From positions 1 through 64,000 of the IMG/VR virus record IMGVR_UViG_3300010413_000010: a DNA stretch of 64,000 bases; one strand, given 5' to 3'. Origin of the DNA: a virus. The notes under the pieces were generated by a model, which was not told the origin of the DNA, ran no database searches, and was given only the letters and a program-made list of their open reading frames with translations. The position numbers were made by a program, and so were the translations under genes. Positions 1-53,968 of this stretch are shown here, piece by piece. The first letter of the stretch is position 1. Each line of letters opens with the position of its first letter.

Positions 1-373
1 AACCGAAACGAGACCGGCGGGAAATCGACCAAGCCCCATAATACAGAATATAGAACCGGGAAGACTCCCGGCTCCGGCCTACCGTCTGCGGATTTCCTGA
101 AAAGTAGACTAAATTTCCCTTTAGTCTACTCCCAGGGCTGCCTGAAAGTTAGGGGAGGCGAAGCAAGTTAGTCGCCCCTAAACAACGCTTTCGCTAACTG
201 GACCCCGGAATTTTTTAATAATTTTGGACTCCCTACGGGCCGTTTTTTTAAAAAGGAGTAGAGGCCCACCGGTTTGGCATTAGTACTTCTGTGTTCATAC
301 TGACTATCTTACCCTAAAATTTTTTATAAGTAAATTCCTCTCTCTTTTGGGGTTTTCTGGTATACTTCTTTTT
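1..373. other. Structured non-coding region
   Basis: No credible ORF. Seen directly: an 11-bp perfect inverted repeat at 103-113/120-130 with a 6-nt loop; CCGGG/CCCGG near 56-72; TTAGGGG (149-155) with CCCCTAA (175-181); and AGTTAG (166-171) with CTAACT (194-199). The last two pairings interleave, so an H-type pseudoknot is possible. A T-run lies at 245-251. This could be a structured RNA, the 3' end of a transcript cut by the window edge, or a replication or packaging site. No tRNA T-arm was found. Confidence 0.5.
361..373 (+). promoter_or_regulatory. Extended -10 promoter, leaderless start for 374
   Basis: TGG-TATACT (hexamer 361-366) stands 7 nt before the ATG at 374, so transcription should begin at or next to the A of the start codon. 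There is no good -35 box at 16-18 nt; the TGN extension may compensate. There is no Shine-Dalgarno. Confidence 0.6.
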
Positions 374-544
374 ATGAACGAAGTTAAAAACGCCGTCATA
401 CAGATGCAGAATGTTCAGCCTATTGAACATATTGATTGCCCTTACTGTGATGAACCACTGCTGGTAGGAACTGAGACCGTGATCGCTGTAGTCACCTGCT
501 CTCATTGTGGGTTAACCTTTTCGTTCTGCAGGGATAGTGTATGA
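374..544 (+). CDS. Small zinc-ribbon protein, leaderless
   Basis: 56 aa of unknown function. Two CxxC pairs (CPYC about residues 23-26, CSHC about 43-46) form a single zinc ribbon, a common nucleic-acid or protein-binding fold in small phage proteins. The ATG at 374 was preferred over an in-frame TTG at 347 because a TATACT -10 box lies between them and would leave the TTG untranscribed. The stop overlaps the next start (ATGA), so translation of 541 is probably coupled. Confidence 0.7.
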   Translation: MNEVKNAVIQMQNVQPIEHIDCPYCDEPLLVGTETVIAVVTCSHCGLTFSFCRDSV

Positions 545-807
545 ACGAAATCACATTACCCCAGGATTTGTCGACTCTTGGGAACCGTTACTTTTATGAA
601 CATGCCGATGAGAATGGTCTTTCTCTTCTGACTCCTGAATACGAGATTGCCCTTTCTAAAACTGATCCTGTACTGGGGCAGAAGATTGTTGATATCTGCT
701 GGACTGCTGACCGGGACGGGGAGATGTTCAAGATTGAGATGGATAATGGAAAACAGATCGAGGTCTACTTAAACGCTGACGGAAAGATTGAGATCAGTAG
801 CGATTAG
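541..807 (+). CDS. Hypothetical acidic small protein
   Basis: 88 aa, acidic, no recognised domain. The C-terminal half alternates short beta-prone stretches (FKIEMDNGKQIEVYL), suggesting a small beta-rich fold. The start overlaps the stop of the zinc-ribbon gene by ATGA and no separate promoter is visible, so it is likely translated by coupling from the leaderless message starting at 374. Confidence 0.65.
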   Translation: MNEITLPQDLSTLGNRYFYEHADENGLSLLTPEYEIALSKTDPVLGQKIVDICWTADRDGEMFKIEMDNGKQIEVYLNADGKIEISSD

Positions 808-832
808 ATTTACCTCCTCCAGTCCTCCGTGG

Positions 833-866
833 TATACTACTGGAGCAATTAAACAAACGGAGGATA
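833..866 (+). promoter_or_regulatory. Promoter and ribosome site for gene 871
   Basis: TGG-TATACT (833-838) followed by GGAGGA (about 860-865) and ATG at 871. This copy of the -10 motif has an ordinary short leader with a strong Shine-Dalgarno, in contrast to its leaderless neighbours. Confidence 0.6.
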
Positions 867-870
867 AAAA

Positions 871-1245
871 ATGGAAGTTAGAATTTCAGAAACCTTTATA
901 CCGGATTATGGAGTATTGTGCTGCGCCAGTTGTGGTAGCCCTTTTCTTCACCATATTCGAGCGGAAGCTTTCTCTCGGATGGAAGACAGTGAAACAGGTT
1001 TTCATATCCGAACCCAGAATCTCACAAAAGTGAATTCTCCTGAAGGAGAGGTTTTTAATGAAGTTACTACCGACTGGGAGGCTTCGATTGATATGAACAT
1101 GGCCGGGAATCCGAGTGCGCGCCGTTCTGGAGTCTTGATCACTTTTTACTGTGAAGAATGTGAAGACTTAACTGTTCTTTCTATCTTCCAGCATAAGGGG
1201 AATACTCTATTAGAAACTGAAGTGCTGAAGAAAGACCGGTCATAG
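871..1245 (+). CDS. Hypothetical protein with two CxxC pairs
   Basis: 124 aa. CASC near residue 18 and CEEC near residue 92 probably bind one zinc ion, with about 70 residues inserted between the knuckles. ACGGAGGATAAAAA before the ATG is a good ribosome site. It stands alone with its own promoter. No family recognised. It belongs with the many cysteine-pair proteins of this phage. Confidence 0.7.
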   Translation: MEVRISETFIPDYGVLCCASCGSPFLHHIRAEAFSRMEDSETGFHIRTQNLTKVNSPEGEVFNEVTTDWEASIDMNMAGNPSARRSGVLITFYCEECEDLTVLSIFQHKGNTLLETEVLKKDRS

Positions 1246-1294
1246 AATGGGTCCTTCTGTTGTTCGTTCCCCTTACCAATGGAGTAATTTACCT

Positions 1295-1582
1295 ATGAGT
1301 GACCAAACTTGTATACACTGCAGGAAACTTTTTGAAGGGAGTAAAAACCGGAAACCAAAGGGGAGCTATCTCCCCGAGGGTTTTCTCTGTAAAGATTGCA
1401 TGGAGTTGAAGATCGATGTATGGCGGGTAGTAGTGGGTGGTGCTTCTCTGTGCGGTAAGACCAAAGAAGAAGCTCTGATTGTTGTGGATCACTTGATGGA
1501 TAAAGTCGGTCCGGCAGTGTCTGTGCAGCATGTTCTTATGCCAGCGCTTGACTACTACTCTTTAGACGACTTGACGGGATAG
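1295..1582 (+). CDS. Zinc-ribbon protein, paralogue of 8832-9107
   Basis: 95 aa. N-terminal knuckles CIHC and CKDC, then a conserved core starting DVWRVVVG and ending with an aromatic-rich DYYSLDDL. The same core occurs in the gene at 8832 (TVWRVLVG ... DFYKIEDL), so the two form a phage-specific family of unknown function. ATG 1295 was chosen over an upstream in-frame start at 1247 because GGAG lies 8-9 nt before it and the zinc motif then begins at residue 6, as in the paralogue. Confidence 0.7.
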   Translation: MSDQTCIHCRKLFEGSKNRKPKGSYLPEGFLCKDCMELKIDVWRVVVGGASLCGKTKEEALIVVDHLMDKVGPAVSVQHVLMPALDYYSLDDLTG

Positions 1583-1636
1583 TTTTCCCTGTACTCTCTC
1601 CTTTTTATAAAACTACCCCTTAATACCAGTCTCTGA

Positions 1637-1649
1637 TATACTGCTGATT
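1637..1649 (+). promoter_or_regulatory. Extended -10 promoter, leaderless start for 1650
   Basis: TGA-TATACT (hexamer 1637-1642), then 7 nt, then ATG at 1650. There is no Shine-Dalgarno. The geometry is the same as at 361-373. Confidence 0.6.
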
Positions 1650-2069
1650 ATGAAGAAGCGAAAAGAGACTGTTAGACTAGTTGATCCTAAAACCGGGGAA
1701 CCCGTACATGATGCCACGAAAACATTTAACGGGGTGGATTTCCATTGGTGCGCTCCAGGGCATCTCCCTCCACTGGATCACACCTTGATGGTATTTAGGC
1801 CAATGGAATTTGAAAACAAAGCCGATGGTGGGAGTGTTGTAGCTGCTGAAGAGTATCTTGTAGAGCTGTGGTATGTAGAGCCTGGAATCGCCTGTACCTA
1901 TTATGCGCTGAAGGACTACGATAGCGATTTGGATTTCCACCCACAGGCGGAGGGGCTTTTCTACGCTGTAGTTGACAGAGAGACGGTGTTAAAATTCACT
2001 ACCGAAGGGCAGTATGAGCATTTTCTAGACTTGAAGAGGGAGGATGAGAGACAGTATGAACCCCAATAA
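1650..2069 (+). CDS. Hypothetical protein, leaderless
   Basis: 139 aa, soluble, rich in aromatic residues and in acidic residues towards the C terminus. No known motif. The start sits 7 nt after an extended -10 box. The end overlaps the following membrane protein, so the two are probably expressed together. Confidence 0.7.
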   Translation: MKKRKETVRLVDPKTGEPVHDATKTFNGVDFHWCAPGHLPPLDHTLMVFRPMEFENKADGGSVVAAEEYLVELWYVEPGIACTYYALKDYDSDLDFHPQAEGLFYAVVDRETVLKFTTEGQYEHFLDLKREDERQYEPQ

Positions 2070-2238
2070 AAAAGTTCTATTACTGGGTGCGGTTATTTTT
2101 GATTGCGTTGTTATTGCATATTACCTGGGTTCTCTACGGCTTCCGGCATTCTGGATGAAGGTAACACTTGGTGTTGGTTTTGCTGTCAGTGTTGGAGCTC
2201 TTGTGCCTTTTATCGTTAGGAAGATCGATAAGCTTTAA
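2056..2238 (+). CDS. Small two-helix membrane protein
   Basis: 60 aa from ATG 2056 (64 aa if the in-frame ATG at 2044 is used). AGGGAGG ends directly at 2043, too close to serve 2044, so 2056 is preferred. Two hydrophobic helices (about residues 6-24 and 35-53) with a basic C-terminal tail suggest an inner-membrane hairpin. It overlaps the 3' end of 1650-2069 and converges on the minus-strand gene at 2235 with a 4-nt overlap. Confidence 0.55.
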   Translation: MNPNKKVLLLGAVIFDCVVIAYYLGSLRLPAFWMKVTLGVGFAVSVGALVPFIVRKIDKL

Positions 2239-2465
2239 CTCCTCTCCCGATACTCCCGATTATAAGCATCGACATGCTCTTTGTTTTCTCGTCTCCACCT
2301 GCGGTTATACTCTCTGCAGTGTTCGATATTTTTATCTCTCCATGCTTTTTTAGCGATCCTTTTACAGTCTTTACAACGGCTGTCTTTTCCGTACCGGCCG
2401 AGCCGACTTTTGGAGAAGTATTCCAGAGGTTTTTCGATGTGGCAAATCGTACAAGTTTTTTTCAT
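2235..2465 (-). CDS. Zinc-finger protein resembling the N-terminus of phage HNH endonucleases
   Basis: 76 aa. CTIC-x-CKDC zinc knuckles with the KPLEYFSKS signature, then repeats of Asn-Glu/Lys-His-Tyr-Asn-Arg that recall the DNA-binding linker of many phage HNH proteins. The catalytic HNH part is absent, so this is either a truncated endonuclease or a stand-alone DNA-binding module. It overlaps the upstream gene (2462) by 4 nt (ATGA). Confidence 0.6.
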   Translation of the reverse strand: MKKTCTICHIEKPLEYFSKSRLGRYGKDSRCKDCKRIAKKAWRDKNIEHCREYNRRWRRENKEHVDAYNREYRERS

Positions 2466-2866
2466 AGGTAACTTTTTTCCTTATGGCCGTCGCTTATTAT
2501 GAGGACGGTCACCGTCGACTTTAAATAGCGTACAGGGCTACCCACAAATGAGGCTGAGTTGATATCTTTCTTTATCGGTTTTACCCAGATGTGCGTGTCA
2601 TCTTCTTGGAAGAAAATACCGATAGAATCGTGGTCCTGGGGCTCAGAATAGGTGTCTTTGATCTCCTCTTTTAGCTTAATGTGGAGGAGTGTTGGTTGGA
2701 GTTGTTCGATCAGTGCTTCCATCTGATCGACTATGGTGGTTGTGTCCTCAGTGCTTTTGGCAGCAGCATCAAGCGCGGCGTGTATGGACTTATAGGTTCG
2801 CCGTATTCTTAGTAAAGCAAAGGTACTGAAGGTGAGAGCTGAAAAGGAGAAAATCAGAGTTATCAT
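2462..2866 (-). CDS. Membrane-anchored hypothetical protein
   Basis: 134 aa. One N-terminal transmembrane helix (about residues 2-20), a basic stop-transfer patch (RIRR), an alpha-helical stretch, then a soluble C-terminal domain. The function is unknown. Upstream, TAGACT lies 7 nt before the ATG, a weak version of the leaderless arrangement seen for neighbours. Confidence 0.6.
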   Translation of the reverse strand: MITLIFSFSALTFSTFALLRIRRTYKSIHAALDAAAKSTEDTTTIVDQMEALIEQLQPTLLHIKLKEEIKDTYSEPQDHDSIGIFFQEDDTHIWVKPIKKDINSASFVGSPVRYLKSTVTVLIISDGHKEKSYL

Positions 2867-2911
2867 GTACTTTAGTCTATACCTATAAGAAGGGAGGTGT
2901 AAAGTTGTTTT

Positions 2912-3235
2912 CTATGTGTCTTGAAAGCCACCTTCTTCAAATTCCAGACACTCTTCGGTTGTTCTCTGCCATAGCTGGAAGTAGTACATGAACCGCTGTT
3001 GGGGCTTTGTGAAGGTTCCGCCATTGTTGGCGAAGACTAAAATGTAGGGGATGTCTACAATCCCGCCCATTGCCCCCATAGGGATTCCTTCAATTTCTCG
3101 TTGGTAAGGGGAACAATTATTTCCGGGAGAGGCTTTCATGGCGAAGATGAAAGGAGAGTCGGTTTCTATGATGTTGTACTGGGCTCTTTCCTCTGCGTAG
3201 GCCAGGGCGTTCTTAATGTATTCTACAAAGTTCAT
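2912..3235 (-). CDS. Hypothetical protein
   Basis: 107 aa, soluble. A glycine-rich middle (GIPMGAMGGIVDIPYI) is followed by an aromatic C-terminal helix. No recognised family. It follows the YggL-like gene directly (stop 3236, next start 3235), so the two belong to one operon with the methyltransferase-fold gene 3589-4275. Confidence 0.6.
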   Translation of the reverse strand: MNFVEYIKNALAYAEERAQYNIIETDSPFIFAMKASPGNNCSPYQREIEGIPMGAMGGIVDIPYILVFANNGGTFTKPQQRFMYYFQLWQRTTEECLEFEEGGFQDT

Positions 3236-3592
3236 CTAATTCTCCCACCAGCCGGTCAGAGAGTTGCGGAGGTCTTCGCTCTCATGGAGTGGCCCCCACA
3301 CATCTTCTAAAGAGAGAAAAAGAGATCGCTGGACTTCCGGGTGTTCTTTTACCCAGGCTTGAACTGCAGCTCTCTTCTCTATTGGGTTATCAGAGGCAAG
3401 ACCACAGTCAAGAAAACCGTCAACAAGGCGCTCATTCATAGTGCAGGAGGTACGGCAATTATGTTTCTCTACAACTGATATCCAGTCATCCAGCAATTTG
3501 TCGCGGTCAGTGGTGTCAAAAGTGAAGGCGAACCAGCAGCCGAGTTCTAAGTATTCACCCTTATGCAGTTTCTTTCTCAGTCTTTTCTTCAT
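3236..3592 (-). CDS. YggL-like (DUF469) protein
   Basis: 118 aa. The N-terminal half carries the hallmark of the YggL family (RLRKKLHKGEYLELGCWFAF, then residues matching the DGFLD region). In Enterobacteria YggL is reported to bind the 50S ribosomal subunit. Here a C-terminal extension of about 45 residues is added. Overlap of 4 nt with the upstream methyltransferase-fold gene indicates co-translation. Inference: it may act on host ribosomes during infection. Assignment rests on the N-terminal motif only. Confidence 0.55.
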   Translation of the reverse strand: MKKRLRKKLHKGEYLELGCWFAFTFDTTDRDKLLDDWISVVEKHNCRTSCTMNERLVDGFLDCGLASDNPIEKRAAVQAWVKEHPEVQRSLFLSLEDVWGPLHESEDLRNSLTGWWEN

Positions 3593-4275
3593 CTGTTTTT
3601 CCTGTAGATATAGAGATTATCATGAATCCCCCACCAGGAGGGGAGATGTACTACGTCTACTTCTTCACAGTTTTCATCAAGGTACGAGTGGAAGTCGTCA
3701 TCTGCGGTACAGCCACCTCTGCCTTCTCCGACATAGAAAACTACTCGCCCAGGCTGTAGAGCCTGGATAACCTCATGTGCCCAGGTCTCATCGTAGGAAG
3801 GCCAACTGATGAATAAGTCGCGTTCCGGGTATTTCTCGACAGCTTCTACCCCCTGCAATTCCTCTATACGGTCAAAATGAGACCATACCCATTTCTCAGG
3901 ATTGATGTCAGTGGCGATGATATCAGCACCTTTTACCTGGAGGGTCCTTTCAAGGAAACCGGTTCCGGCGCCGACAGATAGAAGTTTTGTTGAGATCGAT
4001 AGTACCTTCTCTGTTGCCTCATTGCTCCATAAAGGGAATCCGTAACGGCGAATGTATTTACGCCGTACCATATGAGAGAAGGGGCTGAAATTCATGGAAA
4101 AGAAGTTCCGTTCGAGGTAGGTTTTGTCAGTGAGGGATAAGATGAGTTTATCCCAGTCGCCGGTTTTCTTAATTTCGTCGCAGAGGTCCTCAAGGAGATT
4201 CGCCTCCTCGTTCAGAAATTCTGCTAACCGGGGAAGGTCTTTCATCAAGTCAAGTTCAGCTTGAAGGTTATCCAT
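3589..4275 (-). CDS. SAM-dependent methyltransferase-fold protein
   Basis: 228 aa. Motif I LLSVGAGTGFLER about residue 93, the acidic ribose-binding DINPE about residue 119, and a following FISWPSYDETWA motif give a class I Rossmann methyltransferase. The target is not evident. The N-terminal 90 residues are helical and may bind substrate. First gene of the operon with YggL-like 3236-3592. The start is leaderless: TAAAAT lies 6 nt upstream. Confidence 0.7.
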   Translation of the reverse strand: MDNLQAELDLMKDLPRLAEFLNEEANLLEDLCDEIKKTGDWDKLILSLTDKTYLERNFFSMNFSPFSHMVRRKYIRRYGFPLWSNEATEKVLSISTKLLSVGAGTGFLERTLQVKGADIIATDINPEKWVWSHFDRIEELQGVEAVEKYPERDLFISWPSYDETWAHEVIQALQPGRVVFYVGEGRGGCTADDDFHSYLDENCEEVDVVHLPSWWGIHDNLYIYRKNR

Positions 4276-4310
4276 GGGGGTATTTTACTTTAAAAGAGAT
4301 ATTAAGTAAA
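4276..4310 (-). promoter_or_regulatory. Leaderless promoter for 4275
   Basis: On the minus strand TTTACT, a 17-nt spacer, then TAAAAT (4282-4287) and 6 nt before the ATG at 4275. There is no ribosome site. Confidence 0.6.
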
Positions 4311-4339
4311 TTCTTTCTCTTTAGGGGTGTCGCTGCTTT

Positions 4340-4861
4340 TTAGTCTTCTGCGCTATTTCCCCATTTCTCCGCTTCTTTACGGGCTGCTTCCATTAGAGGT
4401 AAACCTTGAATTACCATTTCACATCTTTCAACCATTTTTTTGTAGCGTTCATACGTCTGTTGAAGTTTTTCAGGATCGTAGCGCCTTAAAACTCTGATTC
4501 CCCCAACAATTGAATTACAGGGGCGACAATAGTAGGACGTTCCTCCCTGCTTACTTCCTTTCTTTGTTGCCCGATTTTCATCGGTTAAGACAACTCCGCA
4601 GATTGAACATTTGCGGACAAGGTTTTTCTGCTCTGGCGGGGTGTAACGAAAGAGTTCAACGCGGTGGTAAACTCGGTGTATTCCGCCAGGGAAAAGGACT
4701 CTAAGTTTAAGATTCTCAGAGTGCGTAACAGTTCCGATGTTTCCTGCTTCGTTATAGAGAACGGGGAATCCTCGATCCTCTCTATATCTTTTCGGTCGTA
4801 TTTTGACTTGTTCACCGACATTGATCTTGTAGAGTTGGGAATATGAACGTTTCTTTTTCAT
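4340..4861 (-). CDS. Hypothetical zinc-knuckle protein, leaderless
   Basis: 173 aa, basic. The N-terminal half has an SH3/KOW-like beta pattern around GNIGTVTHSENLKLRVLFPG. The middle has CSIC and CRPC zinc pairs with a GTSYYCRPC loop similar to HNH-type treble clefs. The C-terminal third is helical. No catalytic His/Asn triad is obvious. It has its own promoter with a leaderless start. Confidence 0.6.
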   Translation of the reverse strand: MKKKRSYSQLYKINVGEQVKIRPKRYREDRGFPVLYNEAGNIGTVTHSENLKLRVLFPGGIHRVYHRVELFRYTPPEQKNLVRKCSICGVVLTDENRATKKGSKQGGTSYYCRPCNSIVGGIRVLRRYDPEKLQQTYERYKKMVERCEMVIQGLPLMEAARKEAEKWGNSAED

Positions 4862-4896
4862 GTAATTAAATTATTACAGAAAAAAACAAGTGTCAA
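4862..4896 (-). promoter_or_regulatory. Consensus -35 leaderless promoter for 4861
   Basis: Minus strand: TTGACA (4891-4896), spacer of exactly 17 nt, TAATTT (4868-4873), 6 nt, ATG at 4861. A full sigma-70-type promoter placed so that +1 is at the start codon. Confidence 0.7.
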
Positions 4897-4901
4897 TCCG
4901 T

Positions 4902-5081
4902 TTATGACAACCTCATGTAGACGATATTTAAGAGTTCGTGATCTTGATCAATCAGCCCCATGTATTTCTTAAAAGCTTCAGGGGGCTGAAATTCAGTAAG
5001 AAGTTTTGGGTACTCGTCCAGGAGCTCTTTGATCTCAGTACGGAGCTTTTCGCGGGCAGCTGAGACTTCATAGAGGTTCAT
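4902..5081 (-). CDS. Small helical protein, paralogue of 9938-10117
   Basis: 59 aa. Helical, with a conserved C-terminal half (FQPPEAFKKYMGLIDQDHEL). The gene at 9938-10117 encodes a protein of the same length with MEPPDVWEKYMSLVDQKQ at the same place. ATG 5081 was preferred over GTG 5093 because the length then equals the paralogue. It overlaps the upstream gene 5068-5376. Unknown function, possibly a small binding protein. Confidence 0.6.
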   Translation of the reverse strand: MNLYEVSAAREKLRTEIKELLDEYPKLLTEFQPPEAFKKYMGLIDQDHELLNIVYMRLS

Positions 5082-5376
5082 TGATTTTTCCACTTTCCTT
5101 TTCCATCCATTTCTGGCCCAAGAGAAAGCCTAACCAGGCACTGTTGATGTTATCATCACTGAAAAACTTTCCGTCGAACTGAATATGTTCAGAAACAAGA
5201 AATTGAAGCTCAAAAGCTTTCTTTGCACGTTGGATAAACGGGCCGTCGGTAAATACAGCTTCTGTATCAACCATACGGTTTATTTCAGCAATCAGCATCT
5301 TCCTGAAGTGTAGGCTACTGTCATCTTGGGTTTTCCAGATAAAGTCTTTCAATTCGTGTGCTTCTTTTTCAGTCAT
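5068..5376 (-). CDS. Hypothetical protein, leaderless
   Basis: 102 aa, soluble, helical. The last third includes WLGFLLGQKWMEKESG, a pattern often seen at the end of small phage early proteins. No known domain. It is driven by its own leaderless promoter and coupled to the downstream paralogue-family gene by overlap. Confidence 0.6.
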   Translation of the reverse strand: MTEKEAHELKDFIWKTQDDSSLHFRKMLIAEINRMVDTEAVFTDGPFIQRAKKAFELQFLVSEHIQFDGKFFSDDNINSAWLGFLLGQKWMEKESGKINEPL

Positions 5377-5391
5377 ACAGAGAGTGTACCA
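5377..5391 (-). promoter_or_regulatory. Extended -10 leaderless promoter for 5376
   Basis: Minus strand TGG-TACACT (hexamer 5383-5388), 6 nt, ATG at 5376. Same geometry as the other early genes. Confidence 0.55.
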
Positions 5392-5412
5392 GAAGGTCGT
5401 AGTTTTGTAAAT

Positions 5413-5985
5413 TTAAGCCCTCTTCTCGACTGCTACTGCAGGATCGATGAAGTAGAAGTCGCGGTTTGGCCCCTGGTTCCTCCCATTGTTTAAGAAGTTA
5501 CGGATGCACTTGGTGGATACTCCAGCGAATTTGGCAGCTTCTGTCATCGTCTTGAAGTGTCGAATTACTCCTGTCCCAGCGATAAGTACATCGACAGGGC
5601 GGGGTTTGTTTTGATTCTTGTTGCCTTTCATCGAATTGAGCCCCGTTTCCCTGGCGTGACGGGCGTTTTCCTTCTCTGTAACCCACTCAAGGTTGGTGGC
5701 ACTGTTGTCGTATTTATCACCGTTTTTGTGGTTTACACAGGGCTTATTCTCTGGGTTCGGGACGAAAGCCAGGGCAACAAGCTTATGAATAAATGTTGCC
5801 CACTCGTGGGGGTTGCTCTTCAGCCGGATTCTGTAGTAGCCGGTGTTATTGGTTTTGTCCGGTTTCATGAAGTTCCCTCTACGGGTGTTTTTTACTCTTC
5901 CAAGAGAAGAAACGTGGTAGTGCTCATAGTGTTCGGCTGGGACGGGTCTCCATTCTTCTGGTTTTAAAATGCTTTTAGTTTCCAC
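5413..5985 (-). CDS. HNH homing endonuclease with NUMOD4 and NUMOD1-like parts
   Basis: 190 aa. From the N terminus: a NUMOD4-like segment (EEWRPVP ... YHVSSLGRVKN), an HNH core (VNHKNGDKYDNSATNLEWV), then a NUMOD1-like DNA-recognition helix (EAAKFAGVSTKCIRNFL). It is a free-standing selfish endonuclease, not inside another gene. Start: GTG 5985 has AAGGAGG 5 nt before it. An ATG at 6069 in the same frame lacks a ribosome site. The long leader upstream contains a terminator-like hairpin (6087-6127). Confidence 0.85.
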   Translation of the reverse strand: METKSILKPEEWRPVPAEHYEHYHVSSLGRVKNTRRGNFMKPDKTNNTGYYRIRLKSNPHEWATFIHKLVALAFVPNPENKPCVNHKNGDKYDNSATNLEWVTEKENARHARETGLNSMKGNKNQNKPRPVDVLIAGTGVIRHFKTMTEAAKFAGVSTKCIRNFLNNGRNQGPNRDFYFIDPAVAVEKRA

Positions 5986-6086
5986 CTCTTCCTCCTTAAA
6001 ACCACCCCTGAGATGGAGGTGGCCTTTAAGCCGGGTGAGGTGGTTTAGTTGTGAGATTGTTTTGCCCAACGTGGGGCCTGATAGTG

Positions 6087-6127
6087 TAAAAAAAGAGACC
6101 TCTCGCCGGGTATGGCAAAAGGTCTCT
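6087..6127 (-). terminator. Intrinsic terminator inside the HNH leader
   Basis: On the minus strand AGAGACC, a 20-nt loop, GGTCTCT and then a run of seven or more T. It lies about 10 nt after the predicted start of transcription from the 6143-6171 promoter and about 100 nt before the HNH start codon, so it is either an attenuator or the end of a very short RNA. Confidence 0.6.
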
Positions 6128-6142
6128 GGTAAATGTATTTTT

Positions 6143-6171
6143 AGGTTACTCCAAAACCTCTAATATGTCAA
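6143..6171 (-). promoter_or_regulatory. Minus-strand promoter ahead of the HNH gene
   Basis: TTGACA (6166-6171), 17-nt spacer, TAACCT (6143-6148). The -35 box is perfect and the -10 box is weak. Predicted start of transcription is near 6136. Confidence 0.5.
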
Positions 6172-6205
6172 CATTTTTTTGTCGAACTTTTCGTCCCTTT
6201 TTTCG

Positions 6206-6223
6206 TATAATAAGGTGGAGGTG
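6206..6223 (+). promoter_or_regulatory. TATAAT box and ribosome site for 6228
   Basis: TATAAT at 6206-6211, then GGTGGAGGTG (about 6214-6223) before ATG 6228. The -35 is poor (TTGTCG at a 21-nt spacing). If this -10 box is used, the ribosome site would lie at the very 5' end of the message. Confidence 0.4.
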
Positions 6224-6227
6224 AAAA

Positions 6228-6404
6228 ATGTATCATTGCCCGTTTGGTAAAGGCTATGTGGAGCTCTTCCCCTACTTAGAGGAGAGCCTCTGTAACATAG
6301 GGTTGTTCTGTGAGGCAGAGTGTCCCTATTCGTATGACCACGAGAAAGAGGAGGAGTTCTACACCTGGCTATGGGACGGAGTTATAGAAGGGGATTTCGG
6401 TTGA
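6228..6404 (+). CDS. Small cysteine-rich protein
   Basis: 58 aa with four cysteines spaced over residues 4-31 (HCPFG, LCN, FCE, ECPYSYDHE) and an acidic C-terminal helix; probably a single metal site. GGAGGTG 4 nt before the ATG is a strong ribosome site. The stop codon lies inside the -35 box (TTGAAA) of the promoter for the next gene. Unknown function. Confidence 0.65.
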   Translation: MYHCPFGKGYVELFPYLEESLCNIGLFCEAECPYSYDHEKEEEFYTWLWDGVIEGDFG

Positions 6405-6435
6405 AAACCTAGTGTATTTTGGTATACTGATAAGC
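6401..6435 (+). promoter_or_regulatory. Leaderless promoter for 6436
   Basis: TTGAAA (6401-6406), 16-nt spacer, TGG-TATACT (hexamer 6423-6428), then 7 nt to ATG 6436. There is no ribosome site. Confidence 0.7.
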
Positions 6436-7179
6436 ATGAATGAAAAAATCAACATTGATCCTGTAGATGGTGTAAGAATAGTTGAGTCTGTGAGTGAGTT
6501 TGATTTCTATGAGAAGGAACCAAAATCGTTTCAGGGATGGTTTTATGAGCACCATCCGAATCTGTATCAATTTCTAATATTCCAGATTCCAGGATACCTG
6601 CGGGAAGTGCAGTACTTGTTACAGCGTTGGTTTCGTCGGCATCATATGAGTGATAACCAGCTCTACGGGTTTGGACCTTACATGGCAAAAATACTCTTGC
6701 CAAAACTCAAGACACTAAGAGCCCTGGAAGTTAGTCAAATTCCTCCCGATTTCTATGAACTGGCCGAGCTACCTATGGTGACGTTAGAGCAGTATGAAAA
6801 AGCTCGTGCCGAAGGCAAAATTCTTGGAACAGGGAAAGTGGGCTGGTTAGAAACTATTGAAGAAATGATTTATGCTTTTGAGTTCTTACTGTACCATGAG
6901 TCGGGTGATAAGAAACAAGAGGCTTTTTATAAGAAGTATGGGCTGGTAGACCCCTACGCAGAAGTAGAAGATAATGCCTTCTGGAGCTATCACTGCACCA
7001 ACCCAACCGGGGACTACGTCGGATGTGGACCAAGCGACTACGAGAGAGTAAAGAATGATTCAAGATACGTTATTCATGGTAAAACCAAAGAATACTGTAA
7101 TCTCAAGGCAATTAGGCAGAACTGGATGCGGGCGACGAAGGGGCTACAGCTTTTTGGGAAGTACTTTTGGGCTCTGTAG
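6436..7179 (+). CDS. Hypothetical protein, leaderless
   Basis: 247 aa. The N-terminal two thirds are helical and aromatic-rich (LYQFLIFQIPGYLREVQYLLQ is amphipathic rather than membrane-spanning). The C-terminal part carries YHCTNPTGDYVGCGPSDYERV, a patterned Cys/His/Gly segment that may form a site. No recognised family. ATG 6436 was chosen over an in-frame codon at 6412 because the promoter -10 box lies between them. Confidence 0.65.
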   Translation: MNEKINIDPVDGVRIVESVSEFDFYEKEPKSFQGWFYEHHPNLYQFLIFQIPGYLREVQYLLQRWFRRHHMSDNQLYGFGPYMAKILLPKLKTLRALEVSQIPPDFYELAELPMVTLEQYEKARAEGKILGTGKVGWLETIEEMIYAFEFLLYHESGDKKQEAFYKKYGLVDPYAEVEDNAFWSYHCTNPTGDYVGCGPSDYERVKNDSRYVIHGKTKEYCNLKAIRQNWMRATKGLQLFGKYFWAL

Positions 7180-7196
7180 GTTGATTAGGGGAGACT

Positions 7197-7460
7197 ATGA
7201 CGTGTGCTAATTGTGGAAGAGAATGTGGGGGAGCTCCTGCCGGATTTTACACCGACAGCCATTACTACTGTATGGCATGTGAGTCTGCAGCACTGCAGCG
7301 CCGGATGTTTGAACGTTCCTTCGGGAGACCGAAGAATTACTTCAAGTTATCTTATGAAACTCAATGGGACATCGATGATAAACTCGGTATCTTGGACTGG
7401 GACGAAAAGATTCTGACTCCAGAGGATCGAAAAAGGTTCGATGAGCATTATGATAAATAG
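7197..7460 (+). CDS. Zinc-binding small protein
   Basis: 87 aa. CANC-x-C near the N terminus and CMAC about residue 27 form a treble-clef or ribbon. The C-terminal part ends DRKRFDEHYDK, similar to the first residues of the minus-strand protein at 9726-9935 (MDRKRFDEHVHY). GGGGAGA precedes the ATG. The last 20 bases overlap the macro-domain gene, indicating coupling. Confidence 0.6.
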   Translation: MTCANCGRECGGAPAGFYTDSHYYCMACESAALQRRMFERSFGRPKNYFKLSYETQWDIDDKLGILDWDEKILTPEDRKRFDEHYDK

Positions 7461-7902
7461 CGAAGTAACTGGAGACCTCTTAAAGTGTGCTGAAGAAGGC
7501 CGATACGATCTGATAGTTCATGGCTGTAACTGCTTTCATACTATGGGGGCCGGGATCGCAAAGCAGATCAAAAAGCAATATCCTGGAGCGTACTTGGTGG
7601 ACATAAGTCATACCATTAAAAGTGATAGTTCCAAGCTTGGGTTTTATACTTTCTATGATACTGGGTATTTCCTAATTGTAAATGCGTACACTCAGTACGA
7701 TTTCAGAGGACGTAACAATGTTGATTACCGGGCGATCCGAACAGTGTTTGCACGGCTGAACCGGGATTACGCCGGTAAGATGGCCGGAATTCCCATGATC
7801 GGCGCCGGACTCGCCGGGGGAGATTGGGGTAGGATTGCGGCCATCATCAACCAAGTTACCCCTGATCTGAGTATAGAATTGGTGCGGTACAGGAGCGCAT
7901 GA
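7450..7902 (+). CDS. Macro-domain protein (first copy)
   Basis: 150 aa, a whole single macro domain. HGCNCFHTMGAGIAKQIKK is the ADP-ribose-binding loop of the Appr-1''-processing family, and GIPMIGAGLAGGDWGRI is the second phosphate-binding loop. Known members bind or hydrolyse ADP-ribose, its phosphate, or ADP-ribosyl groups on proteins and DNA. Start: ATG 7450 aligns residue for residue with the second copy (9147). ATG 7441 has a better ribosome site (AAAGG) and would add three residues. Inference: it could remove ADP-ribose marks made by host defence. Confidence 0.85.
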   Translation: MINSEVTGDLLKCAEEGRYDLIVHGCNCFHTMGAGIAKQIKKQYPGAYLVDISHTIKSDSSKLGFYTFYDTGYFLIVNAYTQYDFRGRNNVDYRAIRTVFARLNRDYAGKMAGIPMIGAGLAGGDWGRIAAIINQVTPDLSIELVRYRSA

Positions 7903-7933
7903 ATTCGGGTTTCTCATAAAGTGCGGTTTGTGG

Positions 7934-7945
7934 TATCATGTCTGT
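7934..7945 (+). promoter_or_regulatory. Leaderless promoter for 7946
   Basis: TGG-TATCAT (hexamer 7934-7939), 6 nt, ATG at 7946. No ribosome site and no clear -35 box. Confidence 0.5.
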
Positions 7946-8128
7946 ATGGTTAAAATAGAAAAGTCTGTTCGTGATTTTCTTTTCAGCGTAGCCTACATTT
8001 TTGCTTTAAGCGTACTTGGTACTCTCATTTGGATCATACCGAAACCTGTGGCAATTGGCTTGCTTATTGTAGGATTTGTCGCCGGTGGTCTGGTTCTTCA
8101 CCGGATAATTGATAGGAAGAGAAAATGA
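7946..8128 (+). CDS. Small membrane protein, leaderless
   Basis: 60 aa with two hydrophobic helices (about residues 12-30 and 34-52) and a basic tail (HRIIDRKRK). The stop overlaps the next start (ATGA). The following protein has the same size and topology, so the pair may form a membrane complex. Unknown function. Confidence 0.6.
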   Translation: MVKIEKSVRDFLFSVAYIFALSVLGTLIWIIPKPVAIGLLIVGFVAGGLVLHRIIDRKRK

Positions 8129-8310
8129 AGAAAAAGCAAATGCTGATCTTTCTAGCTTTTTTACCAATACAAACAACTATTGTGATACTTATAACACAGA
8201 GAATTGGGAATCTGTGGATTACAGCTCCGCTGTCTGGCTTGATTGGGTTTTCATTCGGGTTTGTGATTCATAGGGTAGTACGTAAAACAGTTCAGCAAAC
8301 AGAGGAGTAA
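8125..8310 (+). CDS. Small membrane protein
   Basis: 61 aa, two hydrophobic helices (about 6-25 and 31-49), a basic start (MKKKQ) and a tail with charged residues (HRVVRKTVQQTEE). It resembles the preceding gene product in size and layout but shows little sequence identity. Coupled to it by the ATGA overlap. Confidence 0.6.
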   Translation: MKKKQMLIFLAFLPIQTTIVILITQRIGNLWITAPLSGLIGFSFGFVIHRVVRKTVQQTEE

Positions 8311-8312
8311 AA

Positions 8313-8831
8313 ATGGAACACACACATGGGAACTACAAAGGTAAGGTTCTAAACCAGATAAACTTTTATTATGATGATGAAGAAAACCTTCCGTGGCTGG
8401 TCTGCCGGAAGAACGATTCTGGGTATGTGCTTGCTGAGGTATATCTAGGAGGAGAGGAGGAGCCGAAGGGGGTAGGAACAGAATCAATTACAGCGGCTGC
8501 TGCGTGGCTTCTGAAAACGTATGACTACAAGGTAATTAAAGACATTATGCCAATTAGTGCCTTTATTACCGTAAGTACCTACGAGCAGGGAAGAGAATTC
8601 GACCTCTGCCCTGTGTGTCGAAACAATACCGAAATGCCCCTCATGCGAGTACGTCTATGGAGTGACACTTTTACTGAAAAGCTAATAGCGGGAAAAATTG
8701 AGCTGAAAGATGTGAAACCAAGAGATTTCCATTCGGAGATACACACTGTAATTGGTGACAATCTGGTGATGTATATTCGACAGTACGTCGACGGCGAGAG
8801 CATGACGGCTGATAAATGGAAGAAGAAATAA
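8313..8831 (+). CDS. Hypothetical zinc-knuckle protein
   Basis: 172 aa. A beta-rich N-terminal half precedes a CPVC knuckle at about residue 98. Only one CxxC is present, so the metal site, if any, needs other ligands or dimerisation. GAGGAG stands 6 nt before the ATG. The next gene starts directly after the stop codon (TAA-ATG), giving one translational unit. Confidence 0.6.
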   Translation: MEHTHGNYKGKVLNQINFYYDDEENLPWLVCRKNDSGYVLAEVYLGGEEEPKGVGTESITAAAAWLLKTYDYKVIKDIMPISAFITVSTYEQGREFDLCPVCRNNTEMPLMRVRLWSDTFTEKLIAGKIELKDVKPRDFHSEIHTVIGDNLVMYIRQYVDGESMTADKWKKK

Positions 8832-9107
8832 ATGGAGTGCCTCCACTGCCAACGTGAGATAGATGAAAACGGATCGAGTTATTCGCTGGAATGGGGAGGG
8901 TATATATGTGCTCAGTGCAGTGACTTGGAGATGACCGTCTGGAGAGTTTTGGTAGGTAAAACCACTTTGATCGTTGCAAGTAAAGGGGAGGCGATGGAGA
9001 TTTTAGAGCGCCTCCCAGAAGCTGAAAAAGCCACTACAATCATTGAGCCTGTTTATATGAGCGTTATAGATTTCTATAAGATAGAGGACCTCTTTGAGGA
9101 GGAATAA
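8832..9107 (+). CDS. Zinc-ribbon protein, paralogue of 1295-1582
   Basis: 91 aa. CLHC and CAQC pairs at residues 3-6 and 28-31, then TVWRVLVG and a C-terminal DFYKIEDLFEEE. The order and spacing match the gene at 1295, so both derive from one duplicated ancestor. It lies immediately upstream of the second macro-domain gene and 3' of the unit beginning at 8313. Confidence 0.7.
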   Translation: MECLHCQREIDENGSSYSLEWGGYICAQCSDLEMTVWRVLVGKTTLIVASKGEAMEILERLPEAEKATTIIEPVYMSVIDFYKIEDLFEEE

Positions 9108-9111
9108 ATTC

Positions 9112-9146
9112 TCGACATGTGAGAATAGGGACGGTATAATGCCCAC
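9112..9146 (+). promoter_or_regulatory. Leaderless promoter for the second macro gene
   Basis: TCGACA (9112-9117), 17-nt spacer, TATAAT (9135-9140), 6 nt, ATG at 9147. This is the best-formed of the leaderless plus-strand promoters. Confidence 0.7.
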
Positions 9147-9641
9147 ATGATTAAAAACATTATAAAAGGTGATTTAATTGAGTATGCAGAGAAGGGACGT
9201 TACGACATGATTGTGCATGGATGTAACTGTTTTCACAACATGGAAGCCGGTTTTGCGAGGCAGTTAATAACACGATATCCAGGCGTGTTCCGGGCCGACT
9301 GTGAGCAAACCAATAGCGGAGATCGAAAAAAGCTTGGGCGTCATACCAAGTTTCACACAGGGAAATTTCTAATAATTAACGCTTACACTCAATTTTCTTA
9401 TGGCGGAGAACGGGACATATACTACCCGGCACTGTCTAGAGTGTTTTATGACTTAAACCATCAGTATCCGGGTACAAAGGTGGGAATCCCGAAAATAGGG
9501 ACGGGCATAGCCGGTGGGGATTGGGACATTATTTCCGAACTAATAAATGCTACTACCTCCAACCTCGATATCGAAGTAATTGAGCCACGGGTGAAGAAGT
9601 CAAAGCTTATGGAGAGTATGGCTTCCTTAGTGGGGGGTTAA
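9147..9641 (+). CDS. Macro-domain protein (second copy), leaderless
   Basis: 164 aa. The macro fold is clear: VHGCNCFHNMEAGFARQL and GIPKIGTGIAGGDWDIISEL. In the first loop the usual Met-Gly-Ala-Gly-Ile is Met-Glu-Ala-Gly-Phe, a change in the part that contacts the distal ribose, so activity or ligand may differ from the copy at 7450. A basic C-terminal tail of about 20 residues is extra. Independently promoted and leaderless. Inference: functional divergence after duplication. Confidence 0.85.
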   Translation: MIKNIIKGDLIEYAEKGRYDMIVHGCNCFHNMEAGFARQLITRYPGVFRADCEQTNSGDRKKLGRHTKFHTGKFLIINAYTQFSYGGERDIYYPALSRVFYDLNHQYPGTKVGIPKIGTGIAGGDWDIISELINATTSNLDIEVIEPRVKKSKLMESMASLVGG

Positions 9642-9723
9642 TACCCTACAGGGGATAATCAGGAAGTATACCCGACAGGGTATGAAACTGACTGATACTC
9701 CCTGAGTGTACCCGTCCGGGTAT
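9641..9723. repeat. Cluster of four short palindromes
   Basis: Between convergent genes lie ATACCC-taca-GGGGAT (9641-9656), ATACCC-gaca-GGGTAT (9668-9683), ATACTC-cct-GAGTGT (9695-9709) and TACCC-gtcc-GGGTA (9709-9722). Stems are 5-6 bp with 3-4-nt loops and no T-runs, so they are not ordinary terminators. They could be protein-binding half-sites or RNA hairpins protecting the 3' ends. Confidence 0.6.
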
Positions 9724-9725
9724 GG

Positions 9726-9935
9726 TTATAAATCCTTATTGTTCCAGGGACCGAGGCATGTGCAACTTTTGAATTCTGGGGCATCAGGGCCGATGAACAA
9801 TCCATCCCAGTCCCAGCAGAAATGATACCCTTGAGCGTGTTCTTCTTTGGTGTACCATTCTTTTGGTTTTGGGGCACCCCCTTTTCCGCCGTACATACTG
9901 TAGTGGACGTGTTCATCGAATCGCTTTCTGTCCAT
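9726..9935 (-). CDS. Hypothetical small protein
   Basis: 69 aa. It starts MDRKRFDEH, similar to the end of the protein at 7197-7460, and carries CTCLGPWN near the C terminus. Trp- and Gly-rich middle. Directly downstream of 9938-10117 on the same strand and presumably on its message. Confidence 0.5.
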   Translation of the reverse strand: MDRKRFDEHVHYSMYGGKGGAPKPKEWYTKEEHAQGYHFCWDWDGLFIGPDAPEFKSCTCLGPWNNKDL

Positions 9936-9937
9936 TC

Positions 9938-10117
9938 CTACCTCAAATTTTTCAGAATGTTTTCGAGGATAATCTGTTTCTGATCAACGAGGCTCATGTA
10001 TTTCTCCCAGACGTCAGGCGGTTCCATTTTCTCTAGAAGGCTGGAGTATTGCTGTAATAGCGCATCAATCTCACTCTGAATCTTCGTTTTCTGTTCCTGG
10101 AGATTACCATTGTCCAT
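9938..10117 (-). CDS. Small helical protein, paralogue of 4902-5081, leaderless
   Basis: 59 aa (start ATG 10117, stop TAG). Two helices joined by MEPPDVWEKYMSLVDQKQ, which matches FQPPEAFKKYMGLIDQDH in the protein at 4902-5081; both proteins have the same length. Driven by an extended -10 box 6 nt upstream. Unknown function; duplication within the early region is clear. Confidence 0.65.
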   Translation of the reverse strand: MDNGNLQEQKTKIQSEIDALLQQYSSLLEKMEPPDVWEKYMSLVDQKQIILENILKNLR

Positions 10118-10132
10118 GGAAAGAGTATATCA
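10118..10132 (-). promoter_or_regulatory. Extended -10 leaderless promoter for 10117
   Basis: Minus strand TGA-TATACT (hexamer 10124-10129), 6 nt, ATG at 10117. Confidence 0.6.
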
Positions 10133-11316: not shown

Positions 11317-11345
11317 TTGACGTGAGCAAAATTGTCTGGTATAAT
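11317..11345 (+). promoter_or_regulatory. Strong promoter of a short transcript
   Basis: TTGACG (11317-11322), exactly 17 nt, TGG-TATAAT (hexamer 11340-11345). It is followed after about 35 nt by an intrinsic terminator, with no gene between. Confidence 0.75.
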
Positions 11346-11351
11346 TACACA

Positions 11352-11418
11352 AAAGTCCTTTATGGCCTTTTTGTTGTTTTAACCGCCGGAGTGTTACTCT
11401 GGCGGTTATTTTTTTATT
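11352..11418 (+). ncRNA. Candidate small RNA or attenuated leader
   Basis: Predicted RNA of about 65 nt from the promoter at 11317-11345 to the T-run after the AACCGCC/GGCGGTT hairpin. It contains a possible six-codon ORF, MAFLLF (11363-11383), whose stop abuts the hairpin and which has no ribosome site. It could be a regulatory RNA or a leader that lets some transcription through into the MazEF-like gene. Confidence 0.45.
11381..11418 (+). terminator. Intrinsic terminator
   Basis: AACCGCC (11381-11387), 13-nt loop, GGCGGTT (11401-11407), then ATTTTTTTATT. It separates the STAS-like genes and the short transcript from the MazEF-like gene. Confidence 0.8.
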
Positions 11419-50722: not shown

Positions 50723-50962
50723 TTATAATTCGTCGCAGTAGATCGGAGTTCGTTCCCCGTAGTAGGCTCCGGCGATGTTGTAGTCGAAGTAGTCAATCGC
50801 GTTATCAATCCCCATGTCTTTCTCAAGCTGGGAGATTATTCTGTTGGAGGAGTAGATGAGCCTTTCATTTTGTATATCAACACCAATGATGGCATCGTCG
50901 CGCCCAGTAAGAAAAACGAAAGGAATTCCAGGGTAACGGTCTTTTACATCTTGGATTGTCAT
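50723..50962 (-). CDS. Hypothetical phage protein
   Basis: 79 aa. The C-terminal DYFDYNIAGAYYGERTPIYC matches a common small phage protein often found near nucleotide-metabolism genes and of unknown role. Start overlaps the ribonucleotide reductase stop (TAATG). Confidence 0.65.
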   Translation of the reverse strand: MTIQDVKDRYPGIPFVFLTGRDDAIIGVDIQNERLIYSSNRIISQLEKDMGIDNAIDYFDYNIAGAYYGERTPIYCDEL

Positions 50963-52122
50963 TAGGTTACCTCACACCCCCCGCCACCACAGGCAGCTTC
51001 GGCTTGGAGACTGGTTGTATCTGCATCTTCAATCACTTGGGTGAGATCAATCTGTTTAAGAACCTCGACGCGTTTTTCGAACTCTTCCTTAGAAATATCT
51101 TCAAAAGGAGCCTGAGTGTATGTCCCGCCATCATAAGGAAGAACAGAAATAGCAGTGAAGTCTTCCCGGTTATCCCACATCCACTCCGCTACTTCAGCCC
51201 ACTCGTCAGGCCGAACACTGATTGTGCAGGAGACGTTATTCCGGTTGTCACCTTCTACATGACCGGGCTTCACCCACTCCACGTTGAAACGCCGTACCCG
51301 GCGTAAGGTGCCCAAAGCGGTCTCAGTTCTCAGAACGGCATGATCAGGAGCCTTCTGAGGTACAGTGATGACGGCCATAGTCTCCGGCCGAAACTTCTCA
51401 TCCTCGACGAGCTCAGGGTGGAGGAGAGATAAGTAGCTGTAGATAGCTTCGTTCTTCCCGACCCGGATACGTCTGAGATAGTAATCATTGTGCCAAGCAT
51501 GGACCCCGGAGGAGGTTCCACATACCAACGAAGCAGTTCCTTCGGGCTTGATCGCTGTAGTTCTGGCAGCAGGATTGATGCCAATAGCATGAGCAGTAAG
51601 GGTGTTCATATCCTTTACTTCTTTTGCAACCGTAGCCAGGTCAAGGTTGTCTACCCGGCCGGAGGCGATGCCAGTCATGGATACGCCGATGAGGGCTTCC
51701 TCTTCTGTTGTCTCCTTCCACTTGGCTCCAAGATAATGGAAGTCAGTGTAGGATGCTTGAAGGGTCGCAATGAAGGATGCAGCCCGAGCTCGTTTATTGA
51801 GATCGTCCTGATCCTCAACATCGGAAGCATTGATGGTTACGAGATTGCAAAATTGATGGCTACGGAGAGAAATTTCCCCGCACGGATTAAGCCCCCAGTC
51901 CGTGTTGTCAGTGAACATCACACCAGGCTCTCCAGCACCAGAGGCTTTCACACGATCCCAGACTTTAAGGAATTCTTCCTGGGTGATCTTATTTCTCTCC
52001 ATCACAACGGTGTTGTTAGCTCGTCCACGGTGGGAGTGGAGTTCCCACCAGTTGCCGGACTTACAGGTCAACATCTCGTAATCGTCGAGAGAGAAGAGGG
52101 AGATCATTGCTGCTCTACGAAT
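50962..52122 (-). CDS. nrdJ: Ribonucleotide reductase class II (NrdJ), exon 2
   Basis: 387 codons including the stop, in phase 0. Joins exon 1 (53077-53799) to give 627 aa. It carries the active-site cysteine loop NPCGEISLRSHQFCN, then AIKPEGTASLVCGTSSG and the C-terminal redox pair ACGGGGCEV. Class II enzymes use adenosylcobalamin to reduce ribonucleoside (tri)phosphates. Length is shorter than the monomeric 739-residue Lactobacillus enzyme. Read alone it would start at ATG 52107, but the reading frame extends upstream to the intron edge. Confidence 0.9.
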   Translation of the reverse strand: MRRAAMISLFSLDDYEMLTCKSGNWWELHSHRGRANNTVVMERNKITQEEFLKVWDRVKASGAGEPGVMFTDNTDWGLNPCGEISLRSHQFCNLVTINASDVEDQDDLNKRARAASFIATLQASYTDFHYLGAKWKETTEEEALIGVSMTGIASGRVDNLDLATVAKEVKDMNTLTAHAIGINPAARTTAIKPEGTASLVCGTSSGVHAWHNDYYLRRIRVGKNEAIYSYLSLLHPELVEDEKFRPETMAVITVPQKAPDHAVLRTETALGTLRRVRRFNVEWVKPGHVEGDNRNNVSCTISVRPDEWAEVAEWMWDNREDFTAISVLPYDGGTYTQAPFEDISKEEFEKRVEVLKQIDLTQVIEDADTTSLQAEAACGGGGCEVT

Positions 52123-53076: not shown

Positions 53077-53799
53077 ACCACCAGCTAAGACGGCATCTGC
53101 CAGATGGCACTGGATGTCGTGGACCTCGATGGGTTTAAGTTTCGTTCCAGAACCTCGCTCCTGAAGGGCCGTCTCGAAAACATTTTTAACCTGAACTAAA
53201 GCTTCCCTGAGAGGTTCGGGGCCGGGTGCTTTCCCTCCCGAGGTTATGAGCTCGGCACCTTTCGGCCGGATAGATCGAAAATCGAAATCGATTTCATTCT
53301 TTCCATAAAAGTAGGATTCTACCAGGACACGAATAGCTTCGGCCCAGCCTTCAATGGAATCCGGGATGAGGTAACGCTTTCGTCGATTTTTGTTCACACC
53401 TTGAACAGTAGGCAGGGCTGCTACATGCTGCCGCTGTACCGAGTACCCAACGCCGGTTCCAGATAAAAGGAGGAACATCGTCTCCCAAAACACACTGGGG
53501 TCATCCGCGTTTCGGAATGAACAGTTATATAACCGCACAGGGTTAACCTCGATGGCCTGTCCAGCGAACTGGATCGATCTCATAGAAGGGAGGATTTTCT
53601 TTGGTCGGACATAGACCTCATAGGCCAAGTCGATTTCGTTTTCAAGTTTCGGGAATCGTTTCAAGTGCATCGCCTTGTTGCGATCCACGATTTCATCCCA
53701 GGTCTCTCGTCTTTTTTTAATTGGCAGGTATCGGGCATACTTCATGAATGCGGTTAAACCGCTGAGGATATCCCGAGCAAGCTGCTCCTGTGTAAGCAT
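53077..53799 (-). CDS. nrdJ: Ribonucleotide reductase class II (NrdJ), exon 1
   Basis: 241 codons. Start ATG 53799 with AAGGAG 6 nt upstream; an in-frame upstream ATG at 53952 has none. Includes PSMRSIQFAG, LYNCSFRNADDPSVFWE and LLLSGTGVGYSVQ, hallmarks of class II reductases. Unspliced RNA would add only two residues before TAA, giving an inactive fragment. Splicing joins GGT to ATT of exon 2. Confidence 0.92.
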
Positions 53800-53939
53800 A
53801 TTAGCTCCTTGTGAGTAAAATTGTGTATGTGTTTCCGTGGAATTCCCCGGAACGGGGAGTAGAGGAAAGGCTTGTATTGTATCACGAACGGAGTTCCATC
53901 CGTGTCTCCCTGTTTTTTTGGGAAAGGAGAAAAGAGGGG

Positions 53940-53968
53940 TTGACACCCGCAACGTTACAGGTTATATT
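53940..53968 (+). promoter_or_regulatory. Consensus promoter of the HigBA-like module
   Basis: TTGACA (53940-53945), 17 nt, TATATT (53963-53968). AAGGAGG (53990-53996) precedes ATG 54001. It lies divergent from nrdJ, so the 200-nt gap also holds the nrdJ leader. Confidence 0.85.

What the first reader, a model, noticed from the sequence alone, without database searches (positions are those of the whole stretch)
361..10130. Array of leaderless promoters for the early genes, on both strands
At least nine gene starts (374, 1650, 6436, 7946, 9147 on plus; 4275, 4861, 5376, 10117 on minus) have a -10 hexamer (TATACT, TATAAT, TATCAT, TAAAAT, TAATTT or TACACT) exactly 6-7 nt before the ATG and no ribosome site. 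Most have the TGN extension. Genes at 541, 871, 6228 and 8313 in the same region use normal ribosome sites or coupling. The constant spacing argues for selection for leaderless mRNA. Leaderless messages can be read by 70S ribosomes when normal initiation is impaired.
Basis: partly seen in the sequence, partly recalled or inferred. Interest (0 to 1): 0.75.

Follow-up and report, generated by a model that had tools for sequence, protein, structure and literature searches.

The report
Phage gene block with leaderless promoters
A 10-kb block of small genes in an uncultured bacterial virus has ten promoters placed so close to the start codon that the messages should begin exactly at the AUG, with no ribosome-binding leader, while the rest of the same genome uses ordinary leaders.

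Summary
All nine gene starts have a -10 hexamer 6-7 nt before the ATG, and a tenth lies at 2866 on the minus strand. Each of the ten heads its own short operon. At a fixed score cut, 9 of 25 starts carry such a promoter; shuffled upstream sequence gives a mean of 0.08 (maximum 2). Three independent features not used to choose the sites agree. All ten have a pyrimidine just before the A of ATG (3 of 15 at the other starts). All four promoters lacking TGN have a -35 at 17-18 bp. Two paralogue pairs place the start codon at the leaderless ATG. Outside the block, 10 of 10 strong gene-proximal promoters of the same phage leave 23-80 nt before the start. The arrangement recurs in at least five environmental phages that share no block proteins with this one. 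Leaderless phage genes are known (lambda cI, Corndog); what is unusual is the number and their confinement to one block. "Early" timing and translation by 70S ribosomes when normal initiation is impaired are not shown. The host is unknown and no transcript 5' ends have been mapped.

The parts
361..376 (+). leaderless promoter: TGG-TATACT (361-366), 7 nt, ATG at 374; heads operon 374-807 (56-aa zinc-ribbon-like protein, then coupled 541)
   Evidence: spacer is all pyrimidine, so A of ATG is the only purine in the start window
1637..1652 (+). leaderless promoter: TGA-TATACT (1637-1642), 7 nt, ATG at 1650; heads 1650-2238
   Evidence: no in-frame start upstream
   Evidence: no alternative start within 45 codons
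4273..4310 (-). leaderless promoter: TTTACT (4310-4305), 17 bp, TAAAAT (4287-4282), 6 nt, ATG at 4275; heads 4275-2912 (SAM-methyltransferase-like protein, phrog_19090, then 3592 and 3235)
4859..4896 (-). leaderless promoter: TTGACA (4896-4891), 17 bp, TAATTT (4873-4868), 6 nt, ATG at 4861; single gene 4861-4340
   Evidence: an overlapping TAATAA gives spacing 8, but the -35 at 17 selects TAATTT
5374..5411 (-). leaderless promoter: TTTACA (5411-5406), 17 bp, TGG-TACACT (5388-5383), 6 nt, ATG at 5376; heads 5376-4902
6401..6438 (+). leaderless promoter: TTGAAA (6401-6406), 16 bp, TGG-TATACT (6423-6428), 7 nt, ATG at 6436; heads 6436-7902 (last gene is a macrodomain protein)
7911..7948 (+). leaderless promoter: TTCTCA (7911-7916), 17 bp, TGG-TATCAT (7934-7939), 6 nt, ATG at 7946; heads 7946-9107
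9112..9149 (+). leaderless promoter: TCGACA (9112-9117), 17 bp, TATAAT (9135-9140), 6 nt, ATG at 9147; single macrodomain gene 9147-9641
   Evidence: start codon matches the start of its paralogue at 7441/7450
10115..10129 (-). leaderless promoter: TGA-TATACT (10129-10124), 6 nt, ATG at 10117; heads 10117-9659
   Evidence: start codon matches the start of its paralogue at 5081/5093
809..873 (+). leadered, SD-led promoter inside the block, for contrast: TGG-TATACT (833-838), 32 nt, ATG at 871
6207..6230 (+). short-leader, SD-led promoter inside the block: TATAAT (6207-6212), 16 nt from -10 to ATG at 6228

Best explanation
The block 361-10130 is an array of short, independently transcribed units of small accessory-type phage genes. 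Ten of them are driven by host-type (sigma70-family) promoters whose -10 element sits 6-7 nt before the ATG. The host RNA polymerase should start at the A of the start codon and make 5'-AUG mRNAs without a leader, which the host ribosome binds by the 5'-terminal AUG. Downstream genes of each unit are then reached by SD sites or coupling. Shown by sequence: promoter anatomy, fixed spacing, initiator signature, operon-head position, contrast with the rest of the genome. Inferred: the start site, leaderless translation, and the reason for the design. The reason I favour is that a promoter fused to an ATG is the most compact self-contained expression unit, suited to genes that are gained, duplicated and turned around singly on both strands in a host able to translate such messages. 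The confidence given is for the promoters being leaderless; for the cassette reason alone I would say about 0.4.
For: Geometry read directly at all ten starts. 9 of 25 starts against 0.08 in shuffles. Mean -35 score at 17/18 bp is 2.6, against -1.3 (sd 0.7, maximum 0.07) at shifted positions; the four promoters without TGN all have a -35. Pyrimidine at -1 in 10 of 10 leaderless starts against 3 of 15 others, p = 1e-4. Positive control: the same scan finds lambda cI, a known leaderless gene, as the only site at spacing 6-7 in lambda. Two paralogue pairs fix the start codon at the leaderless ATG: macrodomains 7441/9147, 49% identical, and 5093/10117. Outside the block, 10 of 10 strong gene-proximal promoters leave 23-80 nt, nearly all with an SD. 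The same geometry recurs in unrelated phages.
Against: No transcript data. The host is unknown, so its sigma factor and its ability to translate leaderless mRNA are assumed. No close relative carrying the block was found, so conservation of these particular sites could not be tested. Two units in the block (871, 6228) are leadered and SD-led. The cassette reason for the design is an inference from layout only.
Confidence: 0.88

Rival explanations
1. Host habit: the host makes many leaderless mRNAs, as Deinococcota and Actinobacteria do, and the phage genes simply follow the host's usual pattern without phage-specific selection.
For: In Deinococcus radiodurans the -10 motif lies about 6-7 bp before about a third of ORFs, TACACT is the commonest form, and an added -35 raises expression (PMC12340547): the same geometry as here.
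Against: The same phage uses leaders at 10 of 10 strong promoters outside the block, so the host alone does not explain the confinement to one block. No host was found.
Confidence: 0.3
2. A timed promoter class: the block is expressed at its own time through extended -10 promoters after a phage factor disables -35 recognition, as gp39 does in Thermus phage P23-45.
For: Six of ten have TGN and three of these have no usable -35. P23-45 middle and late promoters are of the extended -10 class and are less affected by gp39 (PMC7403470). Three P23-45 genes show TATTAT-6-ATG or a close form in the part examined.
Against: At least five of ten have a clear -35 at 17-18 bp, including TTGACA at 4861. No gp39-like factor was looked for specifically.
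Confidence: 0.12
3. A translational regulon: leaderless first genes keep being translated when SD-dependent initiation is impaired by stress, host defence or the phage itself.
For: Leaderless mRNAs bind 70S ribosomes directly and depend less on initiation factors (review PMC9031893).
Against: Most block operons have second and third genes with SD sites or coupling. The MazF stress-ribosome model has not been reproduced by others (PMC9031893). No phage factor that would impair SD initiation was seen.
Confidence: 0.12
4. Chance: AT-rich upstream sequence yields -10-like hexamers near ATGs.
For: The -10 consensus is short and degenerate.
Against: Shuffles, shifted -35 control, -1 pyrimidine signature and the near-empty rest of the genome.
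Confidence: 0.02

Closest known systems
lambda cI from PRM (leaderless phage gene)
   Same: -10 (TAGATT) 6 nt before ATG, pyrimidine at -1; found by the same scan
   Different: one gene in lambda, the repressor; here ten operon heads on both strands
Cluster O mycobacteriophages (Corndog), promoters PL1, PR2, PL2
   Different: three such promoters, two of them divergent from one intergenic region; not an array of ten
Thermus phage P23-45 promoters
   Same: extended -10 class for middle and late promoters (PMC7403470); a TANNNT 6 nt before ATG at three of 77 minus-strand starts in the first 50 kb
   Different: there a temporal class resisting gp39; timing unknown here. That P23-45 middle and late transcripts are leaderless is from memory; the primary paper was not held
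Deinococcus -10-motif genes (TANNNT 6-7 bp before the ORF)
   Same: same spacing, same kind of hexamer (TACACT commonest there), -35 optional (PMC12340547)
   Different: chromosomal genes of a bacterial phylum; no link of this phage to Deinococcota was found
Unnamed IMG/VR phages L194, L162, L253, L168, L155
   Same: arrays of small genes, each with -35/-10 and 6-7 nt to ATG
   Different: in L162, L253, L168 and L194 the promoters resemble each other and share a strong -35; in the window they are not repeats. No shared block proteins

Membership tests
Leaderless (TA-led) bacterial-type genes | -10 element about 10 bp before the start codon (gap of 6-7 nt) | tested here: met
   ten starts
Leaderless (TA-led) bacterial-type genes | no SD in the would-be mRNA | tested here: met
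   the -8.6 value at 9147 lies inside the promoter
Leaderless (TA-led) bacterial-type genes | AUG, not GUG or UUG, as start | tested here: met
   10 of 10 ATG
Leaderless (TA-led) bacterial-type genes | mapped transcription start at the A of AUG | not testable with these tools
   only indirect: pyrimidine at -1 in 10 of 10
sigma70-family promoters | TTGACA-like -35 at 16-18 bp, or TGN extension | tested here: met
   six with TGN, the other four with a -35 at 17-18
P23-45-type extended -10 class | all members extended -10 and independent of -35 | tested here: not met
   four of ten lack TGN and have a -35
P23-45-type extended -10 class | temporal switch by a gp39-like RNAP-binding protein | not tested
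   no gp39 search was made
Deinococcota -10-motif expression | host in Deinococcota | tested here: inconclusive
   no host relative found in genome contigs

The most novel reading that the evidence does not exclude
Many unrelated phages carry a dedicated block of leaderless, individually promoted small genes that forms a translational class distinct from the SD-led core genome, so that the first protein of each unit can be made under ribosome states that exclude core genes.
Probability: 0.12. Interest if true: 0.8.

Novelty: new variant of a known kind. Interest (0 to 1): 0.5.

Why it matters
Leaderless phage genes are usually cited one at a time. Here ten operon heads in one block are leaderless while the rest of the genome is SD-led, and similar arrays turned up in at least five unrelated environmental phages. 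That gives a simple sequence signature for phage accessory-gene blocks, helps correct start codons in phage annotation (SD-based callers may miss or mis-start such genes), and makes a testable case for why a virus would use two initiation modes in one genome.

Tried and rejected
Host identification: TerL, RecA and early-protein scans of viral contigs and two genome-contig scans found no host. Conservation in relatives: the close relatives L009/G001 and L097-L099/G002 share the replication module (Pol 54-55%, RecA 63-64%), but the fetched stretches do not carry this block, so site-by-site conservation could not be tested. More distant TerL relatives do not match the block proteins, apart from HNH-endonuclease hits. 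A first scan with a strict -10 cut and my own gene caller blurred the signal, because several leaderless genes (374, 4861, 7946) were not called. Shared operators or repeats between the ten promoters: none convincing. Defence role of the block proteins: PADLOC gave only a DarG-like macrodomain hit for 9147. Chance and mis-chosen start codons were rejected.

Full report
Where the window lies. The window is the first 64,000 bases of a 98,634-base IMG/VR virus record. It encodes terminase, portal, head, tail and tape-measure proteins. The rest of the record encodes a UDG-PolA fusion, a RecA-like protein, a helicase and an integrase. A 24-kb stretch of it has no megablast match in 50,697 named phage records.

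The observation. Reading 50 nt upstream of each start confirms all nine sites with the hexamers and spacings given, and adds a tenth at minus 2866 (TTTACA-18-TAGACT-7-ATG). All ten are the first gene of a transcription unit, as judged from layout. The other starts in the block are mostly inside units and have SD sites or overlap the previous gene; 871 and 6228 head units with a leader and an SD.

Chance. With a standard sigma70 score (-10, TGN, -35) and a fixed cut, 9 of 25 starts in the block have a promoter at spacing 6-7. In 400 dinucleotide shuffles the mean is 0.08 and the maximum 2. Counting all promoter-ATG pairs at spacings 0-40, the block has 9 of 14 at 6-7 and the other 88 kb has 1 of 52, an internal ATG (Fisher p = 5e-7). 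Ten of the twelve promoter-headed units I recognise in the block are leaderless. Outside it, all ten strong promoters near a gene start leave 23-80 nt between -10 and start.

Independent support. Its mean score at 17/18 bp is 2.6, against -1.3 (sd 0.7, maximum 0.07) at shifted positions, and the four promoters without TGN all have one: TTGACA, TTTACT, TTTACA, TCGACA. RNA polymerase prefers a pyrimidine before a purine start (established knowledge). The base before the A of ATG is a pyrimidine in 10 of 10 leaderless starts and 3 of 15 others (p = 1e-4). At 374 and 10117 the spacer is all pyrimidine, so the A of ATG is the only purine in the start window. Seven of the ten ATGs are the most upstream start the frame allows, and 2866 and 4861 have no alternative start within 45 codons. 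The macrodomain paralogues 7441 and 9147 (49% identical) begin at the same residue, taking the second ATG of 7441, and so do the small proteins 10117 and 5093/5081. In both pairs the leaderless copy is the first gene of its unit and the SD-led or coupled copy is internal, so the mode goes with position and not with gene family.

Controls. The same scan on lambda returns cI as its only site at spacing 6-7. In Thermus phage P23-45 a simple TANNNT check finds three starts at spacing 6 among 77 minus-strand genes.

Other phages. No close relative carrying this block was found. Relatives of the replication module (L009; L097 and L099) mostly use TTGACA promoters with leaders and SD sites in the stretches seen. 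Sites beyond the selected one were then counted. L162, L253, L168, L155 and L194 each have 6-7 further leaderless sites in 8.5-15 kb. Over these five loci, spacings 6 and 7 hold 24 and 7 sites, against at most 6 at any other spacing from 3 to 30, and -1 is a pyrimidine in 26 of 31. The five were picked from the 120 because they had many such sites, so the count shows that arrays exist elsewhere, not how common they are. None shares proteins with the block. The array in the window is therefore not unique. Before that scan, no other locus of about 140 held more than 4 such sites in 10.4 kb.

Interpretation. That these are promoters placed for leaderless mRNA is strongly supported by sequence. 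The cause of the confinement to one block is open. Host habit alone fails, because the rest of the genome is leadered. A P23-45-like timed class is possible but not favoured, because at least half of the promoters have a good -35. A stress or 70S translational regulon is possible for first genes only. I favour compact, separately promoted cassettes, as inference: the genes are small, sit on both strands, include three diverged paralogue pairs and a homing-type HNH endonuclease. The label 'early' has no direct evidence.

Limits. My gene caller is simple, the promoter weights are approximate E. coli values, the host is unknown, and nothing here measures RNA. The leaderless status of P23-45 transcripts is from memory because the primary paper was not held.

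Noticed in passing
window 11317-11416 (+): The highest-scoring promoter of the scan (TTGACG-17-TGG-TATAAT, -10 at 11340) is followed about 40 nt later by a GC-rich hairpin and a T run (CCGCCGGAGTGTTACTCTGGCGG TTATTTTTTT), with no ORF of size between: a candidate small RNA of about 70 nt.
   Followed up: no
window 7441-7902 and 9147-9641 (+): Two macrodomain proteins (phrog_335, 49% identical to each other); 9147 also matches the DarG model of PADLOC weakly (1.3e-6), so a DNA ADP-ribose eraser acting against DarT-like defence is possible.
   Followed up: partly
L099 13904, 15338, 15905 (+): In a replication-module relative, three near-identical promoter-plus-SD cassettes (GGTGATATGGTATCTTGATTGTAGAGGAGA) head genes in a row: a leadered counterpart of the same one-promoter-per-unit layout.
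   Followed up: no
L155 3464, 5475, 5714, 6108: Leaderless promoters preceded by a shared dyad of the form GTAGGACTACGGATGTCCTACC, which looks like an operator common to the array.
   Followed up: no
window 50962-53952 (-): A class II-type ribonucleotide reductase gene appears split by a group I intron (Rfam match 52130-52416) with a LAGLIDADG ORF at 52330-53040.
   Followed up: no
window 6094-6127 (-): A 14-bp hairpin followed by a T run lies upstream of the HNH endonuclease gene on its strand; a terminator or attenuator candidate.
   Followed up: no
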